Of a DNA stretch of 43,549 bases, positions 384 through 28,782 are shown in pieces (within the stretch, counting starts at the first letter, position 1; each line of letters starts with the position of its first letter). A program made the translations under genes and the position numbers. Source of the stretch: a virus. Below the pieces are notes generated by a model that ran no database searches, was not told the DNA's origin, and saw only the letters and a program-made list of their open reading frames with translations. The DNA lies in the IMG/VR virus record IMGVR_UViG_3300046000_007648, positions 1 through 43,549 of that record; one strand, 5' to 3'.

Positions 384-402
384 TTCAACTTTAAGAGTTG
401 AA
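384..402 (-). other. Small hairpin spanning the gp32 stop codon
   Basis: TTCAACT and AGTTGAA form a perfect 7-bp stem with a 5-base loop that contains the TAA stop of the gp32 gene. There is no U-run after it. It may slow decay of the gp32 message or simply reflect the acidic C-terminal codons. Confidence 0.3.
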
Positions 403-1206
403 CATGTCATCGAACTCTTGCTTTGCCGCAGTTGGCGATATCGGCGATTTCACCGATGCCTTTGTTGTGGAACTCACAATCACTGGTGCTTCACTATCGT
501 CAACGATTGTTGGAATGGGAGCTTCTTCTCCGTCCGGATTTCCTTCGACGGAATTCACCCACGTATCCATGACTGCGGTCAATTCATCATACGACAGTTC
601 TGGAAATAGTTCCACAATGTTTCGTTGATGCTTAACCTTCTCAAACAGAACCTTATCCGTCGATGCAAATGCCGGAGTTGTATTTCCCCTCGGACGAACA
701 GTTGTTTCCGGGAAGCTCTTACCAGTCTCGGCAGCAGTCTTAAATTCTACAAGAATATCGCGACCAGTATTCAAATCGGTAATATCTCCGAAGTCGGAGT
801 CATTCATGATATCAAGTACGGATTGATATACAGTCTTGCCCATTCCCCAGAATTTTACACCTTCATTTTCTTGTCCGCGCACTAGAATCGGCGCGTATGT
901 TCTTGGTTTTGGGTCCAGCGCCCTAGCTTTGGTCCACTCTTCTTTGCTTGAACTATTCTTCTTAAGTTTAGTTGCAAACTCCACAATCGGGTCCGGTCGA
1001 CCAAACGACGTAGGGCTCAAATATGTCTTACCGTTTAAGTTGTAGTGAAACAATAATTCAACGAATGGAAATTCCGGACTGTGCGTATAAGGAAGAAATC
1101 TCACCGTGGTTTTTCCCGGAGTTGGCTTCCAGATGCTTGTCGATTTGTTCGAATTTGCTTTCATGCTCTCCAAGCGAGCTTTAATTTTTGATATGTCTAA
1201 TGCCAT
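391..1206 (-). CDS. gp32: gp32-like single-stranded DNA-binding protein
   Basis: The 271-residue protein matches the T4 gp32 plan: a short basic N-terminal segment (about 1-30), an OB-fold core opening with IWKPTPGKTTVRFLP (about 26-40) and containing SFGRPDPIVEF and the aromatic-rich KFWGMGKTVYQSVLD, then a Pro/Ser-rich linker and an acidic tail ending EFDDMFNS. Such proteins coat single-stranded DNA in replication, recombination and repair and recruit partners through the acidic tail. Unlike T4 gp32 there is no cysteine at all, so the zinc-binding loop of the T4 core is missing. T4 gp32 is 301 residues, so the length is close. Two sigma-70-like promoters precede the gene and uvsX follows. 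Confidence 0.88.
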   Translation of the reverse strand: MALDISKIKARLESMKANSNKSTSIWKPTPGKTTVRFLPYTHSPEFPFVELLFHYNLNGKTYLSPTSFGRPDPIVEFATKLKKNSSSKEEWTKARALDPKPRTYAPILVRGQENEGVKFWGMGKTVYQSVLDIMNDSDFGDITDLNTGRDILVEFKTAAETGKSFPETTVRPRGNTTPAFASTDKVLFEKVKHQRNIVELFPELSYDELTAVMDTWVNSVEGNPDGEEAPIPTIVDDSEAPVIVSSTTKASVKSPISPTAAKQEFDDMFNS

Positions 1207-14646: not shown

Positions 14647-15480
14647 TTAGTTTTCTGCTGTGCTCGGCCAGAAGAAACTTGGTCCCAATGGAATATATAG
14701 TTTTTCCGAATGTTCACATTCGGGGCAAACGAAATTAAACGACATGTCTATATCCGGCGTGCTTTCGCGGATAAATCTGCGCAAGGCCAGACTGTCAATC
14801 GCTGTCAATTGGTCATCAACAAAGTTTTTAACTTTTACTCTGTTAGATTCGCCATCAATGGTCTTGATGGTGTATTTTAATTTCGTGGTAACTTCCGGTA
14901 TGGTTGCGGCGTTTCCAAATTTTACAATAGCTTTAATTTCCGCTGAAATATCAGCATCGTCCTTTACGGTAGTTAAACTAAATCCAATCACTCGTCCGGA
15001 TTTTGGTAGAGTAAATGTCAGACGATTTTCTCCCTTGGTTATTCCGTCAAGCTTGAATTCCTTTACTCCTATTGTATTCAAATCGAACCGCACCGTGGAT
15101 TCTACTTCGCACGCGGGACATTTAATCTTTGGGCTATAAATTTCTCCATATGCACTTTTTCTCGCCGCAATATACAGCGCATTTTGGTCGCCTATTAACA
15201 AATCGCCCACGGATACATTCGGGGTAGCAATCAAAGCTTTCAAGAATTCGTCAAGAACAGTGCCTTTCTTTAATAAGGTGGTGTTGCTCAAAATATCTTC
15301 ATGTCGAGCGGTAACTTGATAAATATCAACCGTACCCTTGGACAGTGGATGACTCTCCGGATAGAAATATCCTTTTGACGGTAGAGTTACCGTTTCAATT
15401 GGCTGATTAGACTTTTGTGCTACCGGAGTTGATTTCGAGATTGGAATAATTGTGTCTGCCATAATATGTTTGTTATCCAT
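14647..15480 (-). CDS. gp26/gp51-type baseplate protein, zinc-ribbon paralogue 2
   Basis: The 277-residue protein has the family opening VTLPSKGYFYPESHPLSKG (about 32-50), a first CxxC in IKCPACEVESTVRFDL and a second in FVCPECEHSEKLYIPLG, and ends GPSFFWPSTAEN, a typical ending for T4-type gp26/gp51 baseplate proteins. It is inferred to act in baseplate hub assembly. A second ATG at 15462 (MADTIIP) could be the true start. The paralogue follows after 11 bases, so the pair arose by duplication and probably works in the same complex. A strong terminator separates it from the gene upstream. Confidence 0.78.
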   Translation of the reverse strand: MDNKHIMADTIIPISKSTPVAQKSNQPIETVTLPSKGYFYPESHPLSKGTVDIYQVTARHEDILSNTTLLKKGTVLDEFLKALIATPNVSVGDLLIGDQNALYIAARKSAYGEIYSPKIKCPACEVESTVRFDLNTIGVKEFKLDGITKGENRLTFTLPKSGRVIGFSLTTVKDDADISAEIKAIVKFGNAATIPEVTTKLKYTIKTIDGESNRVKVKNFVDDQLTAIDSLALRRFIRESTPDIDMSFNFVCPECEHSEKLYIPLGPSFFWPSTAEN

Positions 15481-18151: not shown

Positions 18152-18893
18152 TTAGCGTAAAAGTTCAAATCTTCCTTCTTTCATAACACTGTCTATCATG
18201 TGACACTTAGCTCCATTTCTGTGGTCAGTAATTCGGTTATCAGCATAGTTGTATGTGCGGACCTTATCTCCGCGACCAGCGCCGCTATAATTAGTAGAAT
18301 TACCCGACTTGGACGAAAACTGCTTTATTTTACCCGCCAAACACAGTCTGGCAGTTCTTCGATTGGCTTGCTGACTTCGTCCGTTAATGAAAACTTCCAA
18401 CCCAGTTGGGATGTGTTTCAGTCGCACTGCACTTGACGTTTTGTTCTGGTGTTGTCCACCGTTTCCATGTCCTCGTTGGAATGATTCTTCCAAATCAGAT
18501 TCCTTCATTTCATTGTTCTGTTGCAGTAACCTCGTTACGGTCACGGCAACGTAAGATGTATGTTTCCTACCACCTCGGTCGTTCTTTGGAATGCGTTGTA
18601 CACAATGCGTCCCAGTCTCGGAATCAAACAAAGATTCAGCTTTCATATCCGAACACACAAAACTGAATTTGCTGGGTCCGGTTTCTTCCAACTCAGCTTC
18701 CAGTCCATTTTTTTCCATGAACGCCAGATAAGCTATGAACAGTTGCTCGGTGAATAATTTTGAATCATCCCCGCCCTCGCCAGAAATTACTTCAACCAAC
18801 ACACCTCTCGCGTCAAAGTGACCCCCAAGAGCTAGCAGAGCCTCCCGATGGGTTGCCCGAGTTATTCGAGTAATATGTTGTTTGTGTCTTCAT
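18152..18893 (-). CDS. Class I peptide chain release factor, RF2-type, expressed by +1 frameshift
   Basis: The main reading frame (18802-18152) has the release factor core: ISGEGGDDSKLFTEQLF, ETGTHCVQRIPKNDRGGRKH, GGQ within GHGNGGQHQNKTSSAVRLKH, and a tail with YNYADNRITDHRNGAKCH. It lacks a good start codon. An ATG at 18893 opens 26 codons in another frame ending CTT TGA C, after GGGGG; a +1 slip there joins the frames and gives a product of about 246 residues. This is the layout of the prfB autoregulatory frameshift. Domain 1 is absent. The stop-recognition tripeptide is PKN instead of PxT (RF1) or SPF (RF2). If no frameshift occurs, GTG at 18802 or TTG at 18799 are fallback starts. Confidence 0.85.
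18813..18826 (-). promoter_or_regulatory. Programmed +1 ribosomal frameshift site (prfB-like)
   Basis: Read on the minus strand: GGGGG (18826-18822), TCA, CTT (18818-18816), TGA (18815-18813), C. The three-base gap between the purine tract and CTT and the sequence CTTTGAC match the site in bacterial prfB, where low RF2 activity lets the ribosome slip +1 at UGA. The slip occurs after codon 26 here, nearly the same place as in E. coli (codon 25). In bacteria, slippage needs the tract to pair with the anti-Shine-Dalgarno sequence, so it should also work here. Activity is inferred. Confidence 0.82.
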
Positions 18894-18983: not shown

Positions 18984-19478
18984 TCAATATTGAAGTATCG
19001 CGTAGTCGTAAGTGAGCGTCATGTTGATGGTCAGAGCTTCTTGTGCGCTCCAATCAAGTCCCGTGCCATTGAAATTGACTGTTGATGGGAATGCGCCCTT
19101 CAATTGCCAATTTTCGATTTTATCGCCGACCGGACCCAATACAACGATATTGACATCCTTTTTATAGAATGCCGCATAGCCGTTACGACCGGTCACGGAT
19201 TCGTGAGCAAGACGCACCCATTCCATACAGGCTTGAGCGCCGGACGGAACAATAGCGTCATACAGTGTCACTTCAACGTCGGACCATTCACTTTTTCCCT
19301 TGAGCTTGCGCTTCAAGTTGATGTGGTCTAGGGTAATTGAGTTGTTTACAATAGTTGGACGCGCCGCCGCTTTGATAAGATATGCGGGAATTCCGTCTAT
19401 CTCGATAATAAAGCGGTTTTGAACTTTTGGTTCATACGCTGTAAAAAATATAGAATTTGCATCTAGTAGTTCTGCCAT
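18984..19478 (-). CDS. gp19: Tail tube protein, gp19 type
   Basis: The 164-residue length matches T4 gp19 (163). Motifs of the family are present: an N-terminal segment with FFTAYEPKVQNRFIIEIDGI (about 12-31), the strand region DHINLKRKLKGKSEWSDVEV and, near the end, SAQEALTINMTLTYDYAILQ. Subunits stack as hexameric rings to form the inner tube through which DNA passes. Its own terminator follows. The sheath gene, adjacent in T4, is 6.3 kb upstream on the same strand, separated by an accessory island. Confidence 0.92.
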   Translation of the reverse strand: MAELLDANSIFFTAYEPKVQNRFIIEIDGIPAYLIKAAARPTIVNNSITLDHINLKRKLKGKSEWSDVEVTLYDAIVPSGAQACMEWVRLAHESVTGRNGYAAFYKKDVNIVVLGPVGDKIENWQLKGAFPSTVNFNGTGLDWSAQEALTINMTLTYDYAILQY

Positions 19479-19612
19479 GGTGTTATATAGGGTTAATTGT
19501 TTGGTTATTCATTTCTGCCTGCGTAATCGCATCGTATTATAAATAATAATTAAACAAAAAATATGTTGACATTATCAAAAAAACATATACTGTTTTATTG
19601 CTTACGAACCTT
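19479..19612. promoter_or_regulatory. Divergent region between tail tube and homing endonuclease genes
   Basis: Toward the plus strand there is TATAAATA at about 19540-19547 (T4 late promoter consensus) and TTGACA at 19566-19571 with TACTGT 16 bases on (TATACT also overlaps). Toward the minus strand CCTATATAAC lies just before the tube start. Which signals work cannot be decided from sequence. Confidence 0.4.
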
Positions 19613-21169
19613 ATGGCCAGACCAAAGAACCCAAATAATACATTGCACAAGATTTGCCCGACCTGCAAATCGGAATTTACGTGCGAAAAACGGAAAGAGA
19701 AAATGTATTGTTCTCGCGTCTGCGCATGTAACTCTCCGGAGGTAAAAGAGAAAAATAAACTCGGAGTTGCTAAAACTTTCGACGCTAGATATGGTGGACA
19801 TGCTATGAAAACCGACGCGGTCAAGGAGAATTACAAAGCCGCGATGATGGCAACACACGGCGTGGAATGGGCCGGTGGGATGCCAGACCACGTAGAAAAA
19901 GTTAAAAAAACCCTTGCCGCTCGTTATGGTGACGAAAATTACAATAACCCGACACAAATGAAATCCACCATGATAGAAAAATATGGGGTTGATAATTACA
20001 GAAAATCCAAAGAGTACGAAGAAAAATACAAAAAGACATGTGCTATAAAATATGGAGTTGCACATGCGTCAAAATCGAGTGAATTTAAAGATGCACATAA
20101 AATAACGATGTTCAAAAAGTTTGTGTCGTCCGAGCGGTTCAAACATTTTGTTCCGTTATTTAACATAGAAGATTATTTTGGAGTAAAGACTGTTTCCTCC
20201 ACAATGACATATTCATTTAAATGTAATAGATGCAATAGAGAAGAAGCACACAGTCTTAATAATGGAGCAACTATAAAATGTTCTAAGTGCGACAAAACTA
20301 TGTCGGACTTTCAGTCGAGTATATTTGAATTTATCAAGACACTGGTCCCGGATGACCCCGTGATACCCAACGATAGAACCACATTATTTCCCAGAGAAAT
20401 AGATATATATTTACCAAATCAAAAGATTGGTATAGAATGTAATGGACTTTACTGGCATACTGAAATATCCGGTGGAAAAAATAGAAATTACCATCTCAAC
20501 AAGACCAACGGGGCAGCATTCAAAGGAATACGCTTAATACATATATTTGAAAACGAATGGAATCATTCACAGGAAGTGGTCAAGTCCGTGCTCAGAAATA
20601 TATTGATAAAGGGTAATATAAAAATTCACGCACGAAAATGTGAAATACGAGATATATCATCTCAAGAAAAAAAGGAATTTCTGGCAAGAAATCACATCCA
20701 AGGAAACGACCATGCCACAATAAAACTTGGAATGTATTTCAATAAAGAGTTGATGTCGGTCATGACATTTGTAAAATCCAGATTCGATACGGCAGTTGAG
20801 TGGGAAATGAGCAGATTTTGTTCTAAGTTGGGTCACACCGTCATAGGTGGAAGCTCTCGCCTGTTTTCTCATTTTGTAAAAAAACACAACCCTAATTCGA
20901 TTGTTACATACGGAGACCGGCGATACTTCTCGGGTGAAGTGTATTTAAAGTTGGGATTCAATTTCGTTTCTACGACTCCCCCCGGATATTATTACACAGT
21001 GGATGGATATTCTACCCTGTCCGGGAGACAGGGGTGGCAGAAACACAAACTTGCCAACAAACTCCTTTCGTTTGACCCCGCCTTGTCGGAATGGGAAAAT
21101 ATGAAAATGAACGGGTTCGACCGGATTTGGGATTGTGGGCATTCGAAGTGGGTGTGGAAAAAGTGTTGA
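19613..21169 (+). CDS. Homing endonuclease, EDxHD/Vsr-like with zinc fingers
   Basis: The 518-residue protein starts at ATG 19613. A zinc ribbon comes first (CPTC at 15-18, with two more cysteines in YCSRVC). Then come repeats built on KYGV/RYGD (about 58-165) that probably bind DNA, and a second CxxC pair (CNRC 204-207, CSKC 223-226). The nuclease core follows: FPREIDIYLPNQKIGIECNG (259-278), LYWHTE and IHIFENEW, the Vsr/EDxHD arrangement with E262, D264, E275 and H282. Such free-standing nucleases cut related phage genomes lacking the gene and spread with their flanks. It marks the left edge of the island between tube and sheath genes. The long C-terminal half (GNDHATIKLGMYFNKELMSV) may be further DNA-binding parts. 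Confidence 0.82.
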   Translation: MARPKNPNNTLHKICPTCKSEFTCEKRKEKMYCSRVCACNSPEVKEKNKLGVAKTFDARYGGHAMKTDAVKENYKAAMMATHGVEWAGGMPDHVEKVKKTLAARYGDENYNNPTQMKSTMIEKYGVDNYRKSKEYEEKYKKTCAIKYGVAHASKSSEFKDAHKITMFKKFVSSERFKHFVPLFNIEDYFGVKTVSSTMTYSFKCNRCNREEAHSLNNGATIKCSKCDKTMSDFQSSIFEFIKTLVPDDPVIPNDRTTLFPREIDIYLPNQKIGIECNGLYWHTEISGGKNRNYHLNKTNGAAFKGIRLIHIFENEWNHSQEVVKSVLRNILIKGNIKIHARKCEIRDISSQEKKEFLARNHIQGNDHATIKLGMYFNKELMSVMTFVKSRFDTAVEWEMSRFCSKLGHTVIGGSSRLFSHFVKKHNPNSIVTYGDRRYFSGEVYLKLGFNFVSTTPPGYYYTVDGYSTLSGRQGWQKHKLANKLLSFDPALSEWENMKMNGFDRIWDCGHSKWVWKKC

Positions 21170-25791: not shown

Positions 25792-28782
25792 TTATGCGCC
25801 CGGAAAAACAGCACCGCTCGGGAGTACATTAAAATCAAGTACGATGAACTCTGCGGTGCGAGTTGGTTGGATATAAATCTGACCATACATGATACCACGA
25901 TCAATCATGTCCGGAGTGTTGTTGGTGTCATCCATTACCACCTTGAAGGTGTAAATGCCACTGCGTTGTTGCACGCTCTCCAAATATGGATTCACGATAT
26001 TCAAGAAACGTTGGCGTGTCGTAGACACGTTTTGCTCGAATACCAAGAACCGAGAAGAAGATGCGATGAATTTCTTCAATGCAATCAACAAACGGCGAAC
26101 ATTGATGCGGTCTAGTGCGGAAGGTAGGCGTTGTAGGGTCTTTTGTCCCCATGCTACTACACCTTGTCCCGGAAATGCCGCGATTGGATTTACACGGCCC
26201 TCGTAGAGAGAATCGCGTTCTGTGTGCGTTAGACGGTCCACAACTTGTACTGCGGTTGGGATTCCACCACGCCCCAGACCGGCTGGTGCAAACCATTCGG
26301 CGGAGACTTTATCGCTTGCAGCGAACACGCTCATCATTACAACGGACGGCGGCACTGGAATGATTTTGTTCGTGTTGGTTTCTATAATTTTAACCCATGG
26401 GTAATATGTAGCAGCATAGCTGGTATCAAACTCAGACGCCAAGTCAATCACGGTTTGGATTGATGTTTCTCCGGCCATTTGATTGTGTGTGATATCCATG
26501 ATATAGAATGCGTCACCGCGTCTTTCACATGCATCAACAACCAACGATGCGACGTAAGAGTGATCGTCATAGTTAATACCCGGAGTTGTGATTAGATTAA
26601 AATCCCATTCATCTGAGTTCGATAGAGCAGCCAAACATTGTTTGTATGCGTAAGAACCGTTGGTCTTGTTTGTCGAGCAATCCAATCCTTGTTGGTTGGT
26701 TGGCAAGATTTCATTTCCAACCAGTACTGGAACTGATGGACTTTGGCCATCGAATCCACCTTGGAATCCAAGAATGAAGCGGCGCTTTTTGACGTTGGTG
26801 TTTTCGTTGGAAGCAATATATAGTGGAGACAATCCGCAATTTGTTTCTAGGTCGAAGCCAACGTTCGCATTTGCTGTCGCTCCCAATGGAAGCGGGCAGA
26901 AATATTGTTTGTTATCCAACTCAGGTCCGATTGAAGAACCATTTGGATACAAGGCGACAAGTTCTGAATCGCCATTGGCCGGTGCTGGATTGAATACAAT
27001 ACCGGAAGCATAACGACCCGGTTGAGCGGAGTACACAGATGCGCTGGTATATTGCATTGCTGCAAGTTTACCTAAGCGAGCATATTCTCCACCAATCGGC
27101 GAAGCGTATGGACCGAACCCGAATGGAATTGCGTCAATTGGCCATGGGGATGTTGCCATTTCTACGCGAATGCGTTTGCTCTTGTTCGAATAGTCGCCAA
27201 ATTCAACAATCTTTCCGTTGAAGTCGATATACTTCCAAACATCACCAATCCGACGAGAAACATAATTGGAGCTATTAACATCCAAGTTTAGGTTGTCGTA
27301 ACGTTCCAGCACTATTGGACGAGCGTCCGTGTCGGTGTATTCTCTCAACGCCAAGCTGAAAGAACCATATTTCGTTCCGGGAATCGAACCAGCGGAGCGA
27401 ACATTGGAGATTTCAACCTTATATAGCGTGTTAGCATTTGTACCGTCGCTCAAAGTCTGTACTTTGAACAAATCGTATGCCGCCGGAGAAGACCCAAACG
27501 AGGCGCTAAAGGATGATACCAATTGCGAACGGATGAATGGAGTATAAGCATTAGTCAAATCGAATTGTGAGGTTCCAACATCTGGAGTCACGCCATCTGT
27601 GAATGCCATATTATCAACAGCGGTAACTTTAATCTGCCAGCTACCAGAAGCCAACATTTCGTCGATGACTTGTTTTGTCTTGTTCTTGAAGTTTGCGTAT
27701 GTGTATGCAACTTCTAATTTTTGTCCTGATGCTACTGGGTAATAACCAGCTTTCGCGTCGGTGCCAAATACCGAAGTGATATACGAACTTGCGCCTTGGT
27801 CCAATGAGAATTCATAGGTTCCGTAGGATGCGCTAGTATAAACATTCAATCCCGTGTCGAAATGCGACTCGTTCAATTGTAGCCGATAATCAGCACCAAC
27901 GACCGATGAATCTTTCGGTGTCAATACCGAGCCACTGAATCCGTATAGATTTTGGCCGCGGTCATAAGAAGTATTTGCTAAAACCGCCAGAACAACTTCG
28001 TCGCTGCCGGATGTGGCGTACGATGCGCTACCACATGCGTCTTCCGTCGATACGTCCCACGGAGTAAATACTGCTGTATTTAATGCACCATATGATCCGC
28101 TTAGATTACCAACAACTTCAAGTTGCGTGTTACAACCATCCACGAGATTCAGTACGAACGAAGAACTGATCAGCGCAGAAGGTGCGGCGAGATTTGTATT
28201 TACAATCGCCAATGAGTTGACCGACGAAGAAATAAATGTACTGCCGTTTGAATCTGTTAATCCAGCAGTTGTGATGAATTCCACGTCGCCTACGAGAACG
28301 GTAGAGCCGGAATATATACCACTTGAGAATTTCAACGACAGAGAACCGGAGATGATAAATTCACCCGGAGTGCTTGTGTATGTTGTGGTAGCTCCAAGAA
28401 CAGTGCCGGTAAAAGAACCAGATTCGGTGAATCTTGCATATTGTCCCGGAACTGCGCTGATGACCAATGCATTTTTTTGTTCATATCCGCCAAGACCACC
28501 AACGCGACAGATTGTCACTTGGTTTTGCTGGCGAAAATATTGCTGCGCCGTGATTGGTCCATACAATGTACCATCCGGGTCTCCGAAGATGCTTACTAAA
28601 TCGGCTTCGCTCGTTACTATCGTAGGAGAAAATCCCGGACCCTTATTGAAGGGTGCCACGATTACTCCGCCAATTGCGGCGACGCCTTGTGCAAGAAACG
28701 TTTGGTCTATTTCTCGGGTAAATACTCCCGGTGAGACGATACGTTCCGAAGGGCTGTAATTTCCATTTTGTTCAATTGCCAT
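25792..28782 (-). CDS. gp18: Tail sheath protein, gp18 type
   Basis: The 996-residue protein has the sheath N-terminus (SERIVSPGVFTREIDQTFLA; YFRQQNQVTICRVGG) and C-terminus (RVNPIAAFPGQGVVAWGQKT; DRINVRRLLIALKKFI; GIYTFKVVMDDTNNTPDMID; QPTRTAEFIVLDFNVLPSGA). Subunits form the contractile outer cylinder around the gp19 tube. T4 gp18 has 659 residues; the extra 330 lie mainly in the Ser/Thr/Gly-rich middle (about 110-600), likely surface domains. An AGGAG lies nine bases before the ATG, the clearest ribosome-binding site seen here, and TATATATA lies at 28818-28825. A terminator follows. Confidence 0.93.
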   Translation of the reverse strand: MAIEQNGNYSPSERIVSPGVFTREIDQTFLAQGVAAIGGVIVAPFNKGPGFSPTIVTSEADLVSIFGDPDGTLYGPITAQQYFRQQNQVTICRVGGLGGYEQKNALVISAVPGQYARFTESGSFTGTVLGATTTYTSTPGEFIISGSLSLKFSSGIYSGSTVLVGDVEFITTAGLTDSNGSTFISSSVNSLAIVNTNLAAPSALISSSFVLNLVDGCNTQLEVVGNLSGSYGALNTAVFTPWDVSTEDACGSASYATSGSDEVVLAVLANTSYDRGQNLYGFSGSVLTPKDSSVVGADYRLQLNESHFDTGLNVYTSASYGTYEFSLDQGASSYITSVFGTDAKAGYYPVASGQKLEVAYTYANFKNKTKQVIDEMLASGSWQIKVTAVDNMAFTDGVTPDVGTSQFDLTNAYTPFIRSQLVSSFSASFGSSPAAYDLFKVQTLSDGTNANTLYKVEISNVRSAGSIPGTKYGSFSLALREYTDTDARPIVLERYDNLNLDVNSSNYVSRRIGDVWKYIDFNGKIVEFGDYSNKSKRIRVEMATSPWPIDAIPFGFGPYASPIGGEYARLGKLAAMQYTSASVYSAQPGRYASGIVFNPAPANGDSELVALYPNGSSIGPELDNKQYFCPLPLGATANANVGFDLETNCGLSPLYIASNENTNVKKRRFILGFQGGFDGQSPSVPVLVGNEILPTNQQGLDCSTNKTNGSYAYKQCLAALSNSDEWDFNLITTPGINYDDHSYVASLVVDACERRGDAFYIMDITHNQMAGETSIQTVIDLASEFDTSYAATYYPWVKIIETNTNKIIPVPPSVVMMSVFAASDKVSAEWFAPAGLGRGGIPTAVQVVDRLTHTERDSLYEGRVNPIAAFPGQGVVAWGQKTLQRLPSALDRINVRRLLIALKKFIASSSRFLVFEQNVSTTRQRFLNIVNPYLESVQQRSGIYTFKVVMDDTNNTPDMIDRGIMYGQIYIQPTRTAEFIVLDFNVLPSGAVFPGA

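What the first reader, a model, noticed from the sequence alone, without database searches (positions are those of the whole stretch)
18152..18815. Release factor has an atypical stop-recognition tripeptide and no domain 1
Seen: in the alignment around GGRxHTS, the tripeptide is PKN, where RF1 has PxT and RF2 has SPF. The flank after it (D-x-GGRKHTS) looks like RF2 and the residue before (RIP) like RF1. GGQ is intact. Domain 1 is replaced by a 26-residue Ser/Asn/Gly-rich leader with no likeness to it. Inference: a minimal factor with altered or relaxed stop reading, perhaps independent of RF3.
Basis: partly seen in the sequence, partly recalled or inferred. Interest (0 to 1): 0.72.

Follow-up and report, generated by a model that had tools for sequence, protein, structure and literature searches.

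The report
Phage release factor gated by frameshifting
A phage carries a stripped-down translation release factor that can apparently only be made if the ribosome slips past a stop codon, the trick bacteria use to control their own release factor 2, and nearly all of its relatives in other phages carry some form of the same stop-codon gate.

Summary
The odd tripeptide (PKN) and missing domain 1 are real, but the main feature was not in the finding. The "26-residue leader" lies in a different reading frame. It ends TGG GGG TCA CTT TGA C, which has the parts and spacing of the E. coli prfB +1 frameshift site (AGG GGG TAT CTT TGA C). A +1 slip joins it to a 220-aa factor (domains 2-4).

About 100 relatives in viral contigs (85 lineages at 70% identity) form one clade beside bacterial RF1; all lack domain 1. 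A CTT-stop site in the right register occurs in 55 lineages (2.9 expected, 2 in a control register), with a Shine-Dalgarno peak at the prfB spacing. Stops are UGA 40, UAG 13, UAA 2. Six genes carry two tandem sites. Most others have an in-frame UGA although the genomes tested in depth mostly read as standard code. In all, 82 of 85 look stop-gated.

RF1-type genes with such gates, and UAG sites, were reported absent or unknown in bacteria. PKN is a Thr-to-Asn variant; PxN recurs in 9 of 85 lineages. The two PKN phages use no TAG stops (0 of 99 genes), hinting at UAA/UGA reading. Specificity and RF3 independence remain untested.

The parts
18816..18893 (-). 0-frame leader ORF, 26 codons from ATG 18893 to the CTT slip codon (18818-18816): MKTQTTYYSNNSGNPSGGSASSWGSL
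   Evidence: same architecture in L044 with 27 codons
18822..18826 (-). internal Shine-Dalgarno-like GGGGG, 3 nt before CTT, as in prfB
   Evidence: clade-wide SD peak at this spacing
18812..18818 (-). slip site CTT TGA C (slip codon, 0-frame stop, +4 base)
   Evidence: identical core in E. coli prfB; CTT-stop in 55 of 85 lineages against 2.9 expected
18152..18814 (-). +1-frame release factor, domains 2-4, 220 aa plus TAA stop
   Evidence: AF2 and Foldseek
18581..18589 (-). tripeptide P-K-N in place of RF1 PxT
   Evidence: PxN in 9 of 85 lineages
18452..18460 (-). GGQ catalytic motif

Best explanation
The gene encodes a phage class-I release factor of the RF1 clade that has lost domain 1, and its synthesis is gated by a prfB-type programmed +1 frameshift. 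Ribosomes start at ATG 18893, read 26 codons and meet UGA at 18815. If termination is fast, only the leader peptide is made. If UGA termination is slow, the internal Shine-Dalgarno helps the tRNA on CUU slip to UUU and the release factor is made. The phage thus adds termination capacity when the infected cell is short of it. Shown by sequence: frames, site, spacing, conservation, clade-wide gating, domain content. Inferred: that the shift happens in vivo, that the product releases peptides, and its role in infection. For the PKN branch I put about 40% on a factor that reads UAA and UGA, which would close the prfB loop directly; otherwise the UGA site senses host RF2.
For: Exact prfB-type site and spacing. 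Conserved in L044, where the leader has diverged and the window's in-frame GTG is not a start codon. CTT-stop in the right register in 55 of 85 lineages against 2.9 expected and 2 in a control register; SD tetramers peak at -8/-7. Six genes with two tandem sites. Core under purifying selection: dN 0.19 between window and L044, dS saturated. Intact GGQ, RF fold. One clade beside RF1. One RF-1-family gene per phage contig in most cases.
Against: No expression data. An RF1-type factor with a UGA gate would not sense itself unless it reads UGA. Leader and RF could in principle be translated separately from GTG 18802 in the window. Function in infection is inferred only.
Confidence: 0.78

Rival explanations
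1. The factor reads only UAA and UAG like RF1. The UGA gate is then a sensor of host RF2: phage RF is made when RF2 is scarce or blocked, with no self-regulation at this site.
For: Clade sits beside RF1; 69 of 85 lineages have the RF1-type PPT and most of those with a shift site have UGA there. The RF1-type Gln before the tripeptide is kept in 81 of 85.
Against: 13 lineages use UAG and 2 UAA in the gate. PKN phages use no TAG stops, which is odd if their factor serves UAG.
Confidence: 0.4
2. The Thr-to-Asn change makes the window's factor read UAA and UGA (or all three stops), so the UGA site is a true autoregulatory loop like prfB.
For: Asn lies in the tripeptide that decides stop specificity; PKN phages have 0 TAG stops in 99 genes while most relatives use TAG for 2-44%. 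Factors with changed tripeptides can be functional (PMC3974865).
Against: PPN and PDN phages do use TAG. The two PKN phages are one lineage, so their stop usage may reflect host or base composition. L164 (PDN) has a UAG gate.
Confidence: 0.4
3. No frameshift: the RF starts internally at GTG 18802, and the leader is an unrelated short ORF.
For: GTG 18802 is in frame and would give a nearly full domain 2.
Against: L044 has GTT at that place and no start codon near. In 38 lineages the site lies inside domain 2, where internal starts would truncate the fold. Sites far exceed chance.
Confidence: 0.05
4. It is a ribosome-rescue factor like PrfH or ArfB and not a stop-codon reader.
For: No domain 1, as in PrfH (PMC1586002). 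Weak PrfH and ArfB profile matches.
Against: RF1 profile scores far higher (162 against 62 bits). The codon-reading loop is complete. The tree places it beside RF1. No RtcB-like gene among the 19 window proteins scanned, though PHROGs gave several of them no match.
Confidence: 0.07
5. The phage reassigns UGA to an amino acid, and RF1 plus the UGA obstacles belong to that code switch.
For: Recoded code-4 phages are known to carry RF1 (PMC10746230). Some relatives have tRNAs with CTA or TCA anticodons. L184 and L190 gain coding coverage when TGA is read as sense.
Against: Window: coverage 0.958 under code 11 and 0.966 with TGA as sense; 7 of 42 genes end in TGA; no tRNA genes in the window. Same picture for L044 and for several huge phages.
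Confidence: 0.06

Closest known systems
Bacterial prfB (RF2) autoregulatory +1 frameshift
   Same: Short 0-frame leader, SD-like G run at the same spacing, CTT slip codon, TGA stop, +4 C, leader of 26 codons here and 25 in E. coli.
   Different: Here it sits on an RF1-clade gene without domain 1, in a phage. In relatives the stop can be UAG, the site can lie inside domain 2 or be doubled. Survey of 8,164 bacterial genomes found no TAG site and no convincing prfA frameshift (PMC12421855).
Bacterial RF1 (prfA)
   Same: Gap-free alignment of the codon loop, best profile score, sister position in the tree, GGQ.
   Different: No domain 1, PKN for PxT, frameshift-gated.
PrfH (RFH)
   Same: Lacks domain 1, keeps GGQ.
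   Different: Different codon loop and lineage; PrfH pairs with an RtcB gene.
Release factors of huge and recoded phages (PMC7162821, PMC10746230)
   Same: Phage-encoded RF genes are known; the 595-735 kb huge-phage records hold members of this clade.
   Different: No mention of frameshift or in-frame-UGA gating was found in those texts; several of the phages here read as standard code.
Giant-virus (amoeba) release factor needing readthrough and frameshifting (cited in PMC5009743)
   Same: A viral release-factor gene whose expression needs recoding.
   Different: A virus of a eukaryote; separate case, known here only through the review.

Membership tests
prfB-type programmed +1 frameshift element | CTT slip codon followed directly by a stop, with +1 entry into the RF frame | tested here: met
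   CTT TGA C at 18818-18812
prfB-type programmed +1 frameshift element | SD-like sequence at fixed distance upstream | tested here: met
   GGGGG 3 nt before CTT; SD peak at -8/-7 across the clade
prfB-type programmed +1 frameshift element | conservation in relatives | tested here: met
   L044 and 54 further lineages
prfB-type programmed +1 frameshift element | frameshifting measured and dependent on release-factor level | not testable with these tools
   needs a reporter
Bacterial RF1 (prfA) | clade membership | tested here: met
   beside RF1 with support 100; as a separate phage clade (97)
Bacterial RF1 (prfA) | PxT tripeptide | tested here: not met
   PKN
Bacterial RF1 (prfA) | domain 1 | tested here: not met
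   PCRF matched from position 97 only
Bacterial RF1 (prfA) | NCBIfam equivalog cut-off | tested here: not met
   162 bits against 400
Bacterial RF2 (prfB protein) | SPF tripeptide and RF2 cut-off | tested here: not met
   PKN; 121 bits against 370
PrfH | NCBIfam cut-off for prfH | tested here: not met
   62 bits against 166.65
PrfH | neighbouring RtcB gene | tested here: inconclusive
   19 window proteins scanned, none RtcB; several had no match and the contig is a fragment
Class-I release factor (general) | GGQ motif and release-factor fold | tested here: met
   GGQ at 18460-18452; Foldseek TMq 0.81-0.83 to 1rq0 and 2ihr
Class-I release factor (general) | stop-codon-dependent peptide release | not testable with these tools
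   needs biochemistry

The most novel reading that the evidence does not exclude
Phages share a lineage of minimal RF1-derived release factors whose synthesis is almost always gated by a stop codon: by +1 slippage at UGA, UAG or UAA, by two tandem slips, or by in-frame UGA readthrough. The phage would thereby read the cell's termination capacity during infection. In the window's branch the PKN tripeptide has also re-tuned reading to UAA/UGA, giving an independently derived RF2-like autoregulated factor.
Probability: 0.35. Interest if true: 0.88.

Novelty: new variant of a known kind. Interest (0 to 1): 0.77.

Why it matters
Autoregulatory frameshifting of bacterial release factors is described only for RF2 (prfB). 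A 2025 survey of 8,164 genomes found no TAG site in prfB and no convincing frameshift in prfA (PMC12421855). A 2016 review states that an early in-frame UGA in RF2 genes, and its UAG counterpart in RF1 genes, are unknown (PMC5009743). This phage clade shows UAG sites and in-frame UGA on RF1-type genes, plus tandem double shifts. It offers a natural mutant series for asking what +1 slippage needs, how stop specificity drifts (PPT, PPN, PKN, SPT) and why phages carry release factors. Ordinary gene callers would split or truncate such genes, so they are probably under-annotated (inference).

Tried and rejected
Whole-genome TGA recoding as the reason for the UGA sites: rejected for the window, L044 and several huge phages, because coverage under code 11 roughly equals that with TGA read as sense and TGA ends normal genes. 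Not excluded for every member: L184 and L190 gain coverage and GC-rich contigs are uninformative.

Internal initiation at GTG 18802: no start codon at the same place in L044.

RNA structure at the site: weak z-scores, -1.8 and -1.0, and no shared fold.

Planctomycete hits from the genome scan are ordinary full-length RF1 and RF2; used as outgroups.

A pattern search over fetched loci added nothing.

Literature searches for phage release-factor frameshifting returned nothing on the subject. The library lacks most subscription papers and bioRxiv, so this is not proof of novelty.

Full report
WHAT IS THERE. On the minus strand a release-factor frame runs to TAA at 18154-18152. In frame it has no ATG before domain 2, only GTG 18802. 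One frame away an ATG at 18893 opens a 26-codon leader, MKTQTTYYSNNSGNPSGGSASSWGSL, that ends at TGA 18815-18813. The junction reads TGG GGG TCA CTT TGA C. E. coli prfB, read here as a yardstick, has AGG GGG TAT CTT TGA C. A +1 slip at CTT gives a 246-aa protein.

THE PROTEIN. Pfam finds the RF-1 domain and only the second half of PCRF. The RF1 profile scores 162 bits, RF2 121 and PrfH 62, all below the curated cut-offs. The codon-reading loop aligns without gaps to RF1, with Thr to Asn as the key change. AF2 (pLDDT 83.5) gives domains 2-4 in the compact form, TMq 0.81 to 1rq0 (a peptide chain release factor 1) and 0.83 to T. thermophilus RF2 (2ihr).

RELATIVES. Scans of viral contigs with the protein and with alignments, the phage collection and bacterial genomes gave about 100 distinct genes, 85 lineages at 70% identity. 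None has domain 1. They form one clade (SH-aLRT 97) beside bacterial RF1 (RF1 plus phage 100). Full-length bacterial RF1 and RF2, and a few full-length phage RF genes, served for comparison. Most phage contigs tested hold a single RF-1-family gene.

THE GATE IS CLADE-WIDE. A CTT-stop site in the register that leads by +1 into the RF frame is present in 55 of 85 lineages. From the background rate of CTT before stop triplets (0.0184), 2.9 are expected, and a control register gives 2. SD tetramers peak sharply at -8/-7 from CTT, the prfB spacing. Stops are TGA 40, TAG 13, TAA 2. In 17 lineages the site precedes domain 2, in 38 it lies inside domain 2. Six genes carry two successive sites, reading 0 to +1 to +2: L006 UAA then UGA, L013 UAG then UGA, L078 UAG then UGA, L052 UAA then UAG, L163 UGA then UGA, L203 UAG then UAG. 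L163 and L203 have AGGGGG before both sites. L006 and L013 are 83% identical, so these are five lineages at the 70% cut.

THE OTHERS. Of the 30 lineages without a CTT site, 24 have one or two in-frame TGA codons inside the RF core. Their +4 base is A (18) or C (9), never G or T, against 34% A and 20% C after TGA in the same loci. Eleven such codons fall in the alignment column next to the domain-2 frameshift site. L046 and L170 have an in-frame TGA in the leader, and L281 has GTT TGA. Only L016, L175 and L255 look ungated. The two gate types interchange at least 11 times on the tree, at least 4 of them forced by strong branches. Fifty-kilobase stretches of huge phages with in-frame UGA in the RF gene read as standard code.

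STOP READING. Tripeptides in 85 lineages: PPT 69, PPN 7, SPT 3, PPS 2, and one each of PKN, PDN, PHL and PET. The window and its 77% relative L044 use no TAG stop in 99 genes of 130 aa or more. Most other phages of the clade use TAG for 2 to 44% of genes; two small samples (18 and 9 genes) also had none. This hints that the PKN factor serves UAA and UGA. But PPN and PDN phages do use TAG, and the two PKN phages count as one lineage. Specificity stays open.

MECHANISM. The best-supported reading is the prfB logic: competition at the 0-frame stop between termination and a +1 slip of peptidyl-tRNA from CUU to UUU. Whether the loop closes on the factor itself (if it reads UGA) or senses host RF2 (if it reads only UAA and UAG) is undecided. 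Double sites would multiply two probabilities; those with UAG plus UGA would demand weak RF1-type and RF2-type termination at once (inference).

LITERATURE. mBio 2025 (PMC12421855): prfB motif in 8,164 genomes, 98.6% TGA, 1.4% TAA, no TAG; no compelling prfA frameshift. NAR 2016 (PMC5009743): early in-frame UGA in RF2 genes and the UAG counterpart in RF1 genes unknown; a giant virus of amoeba has a release-factor gene that needs readthrough and frameshifting. PRFect (PMC10885494): all CUU-stop +1 entries in RECODE are prfB. [quoted passage not shown] PMC7162821 and PMC10746230: huge and recoded phages carry RF genes. No report of this gating was found in the library, which lacks most subscription papers and bioRxiv.

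LIMITS. All is sequence inference. Gene calls for stop usage are mechanical. Lineage counts depend on a 70% identity cut, and related lineages are not independent events. The in-frame-UGA class could include some recoded genomes.

Noticed in passing
L188; contig stretch L373 (4.5 kb): The RF gene is split by about 2.5 kb after FINGRD; the insert encodes a 575-aa reverse-transcriptase-like protein, suggesting a group II intron inside a phage release-factor gene.
   Followed up: partly
contigs of L184, L190, L195/L196, L240 (L328-L333, L340-L341) and L252 (L334-L335): ARAGORN calls tRNAs with stop-reading anticodons: CTA in four contigs, TCA twice in the L252 contig, in phages that carry a gated release factor.
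   Followed up: no
L061 at 854-1236 and flanks: A tmRNA gene and 20 tRNA genes surround a divergent gated release factor (tripeptide region PKG, shift site inside domain 2). L046, L055 and L080 also sit among tRNA genes.
   Followed up: no
L046 around 2974-2998; L170 upstream of 2992: Leader ORFs end at an in-frame TGA followed by AGA, in the same frame as the RF: possible UGA readthrough control instead of frameshifting.
   Followed up: partly
window 18815-18893 and L044: A 23-nt block (CGGGCAACCCATCGGGAGGCTCT) upstream of the shift site is identical between window and L044, more conserved than the surrounding leader; no shared RNA fold found.
   Followed up: partly
window 19598-21169 (+): A homing-endonuclease-like gene (phrog_3339) lies beside the tail tube gene, close to the release factor.
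   Followed up: no
window 391-1206, 14647-15480, 18984-19478, 25792-28782: Single-strand DNA binding protein, baseplate hub, tail tube and an unusually long (996 aa) tail sheath mark the window as a contractile-tailed phage.
   Followed up: no
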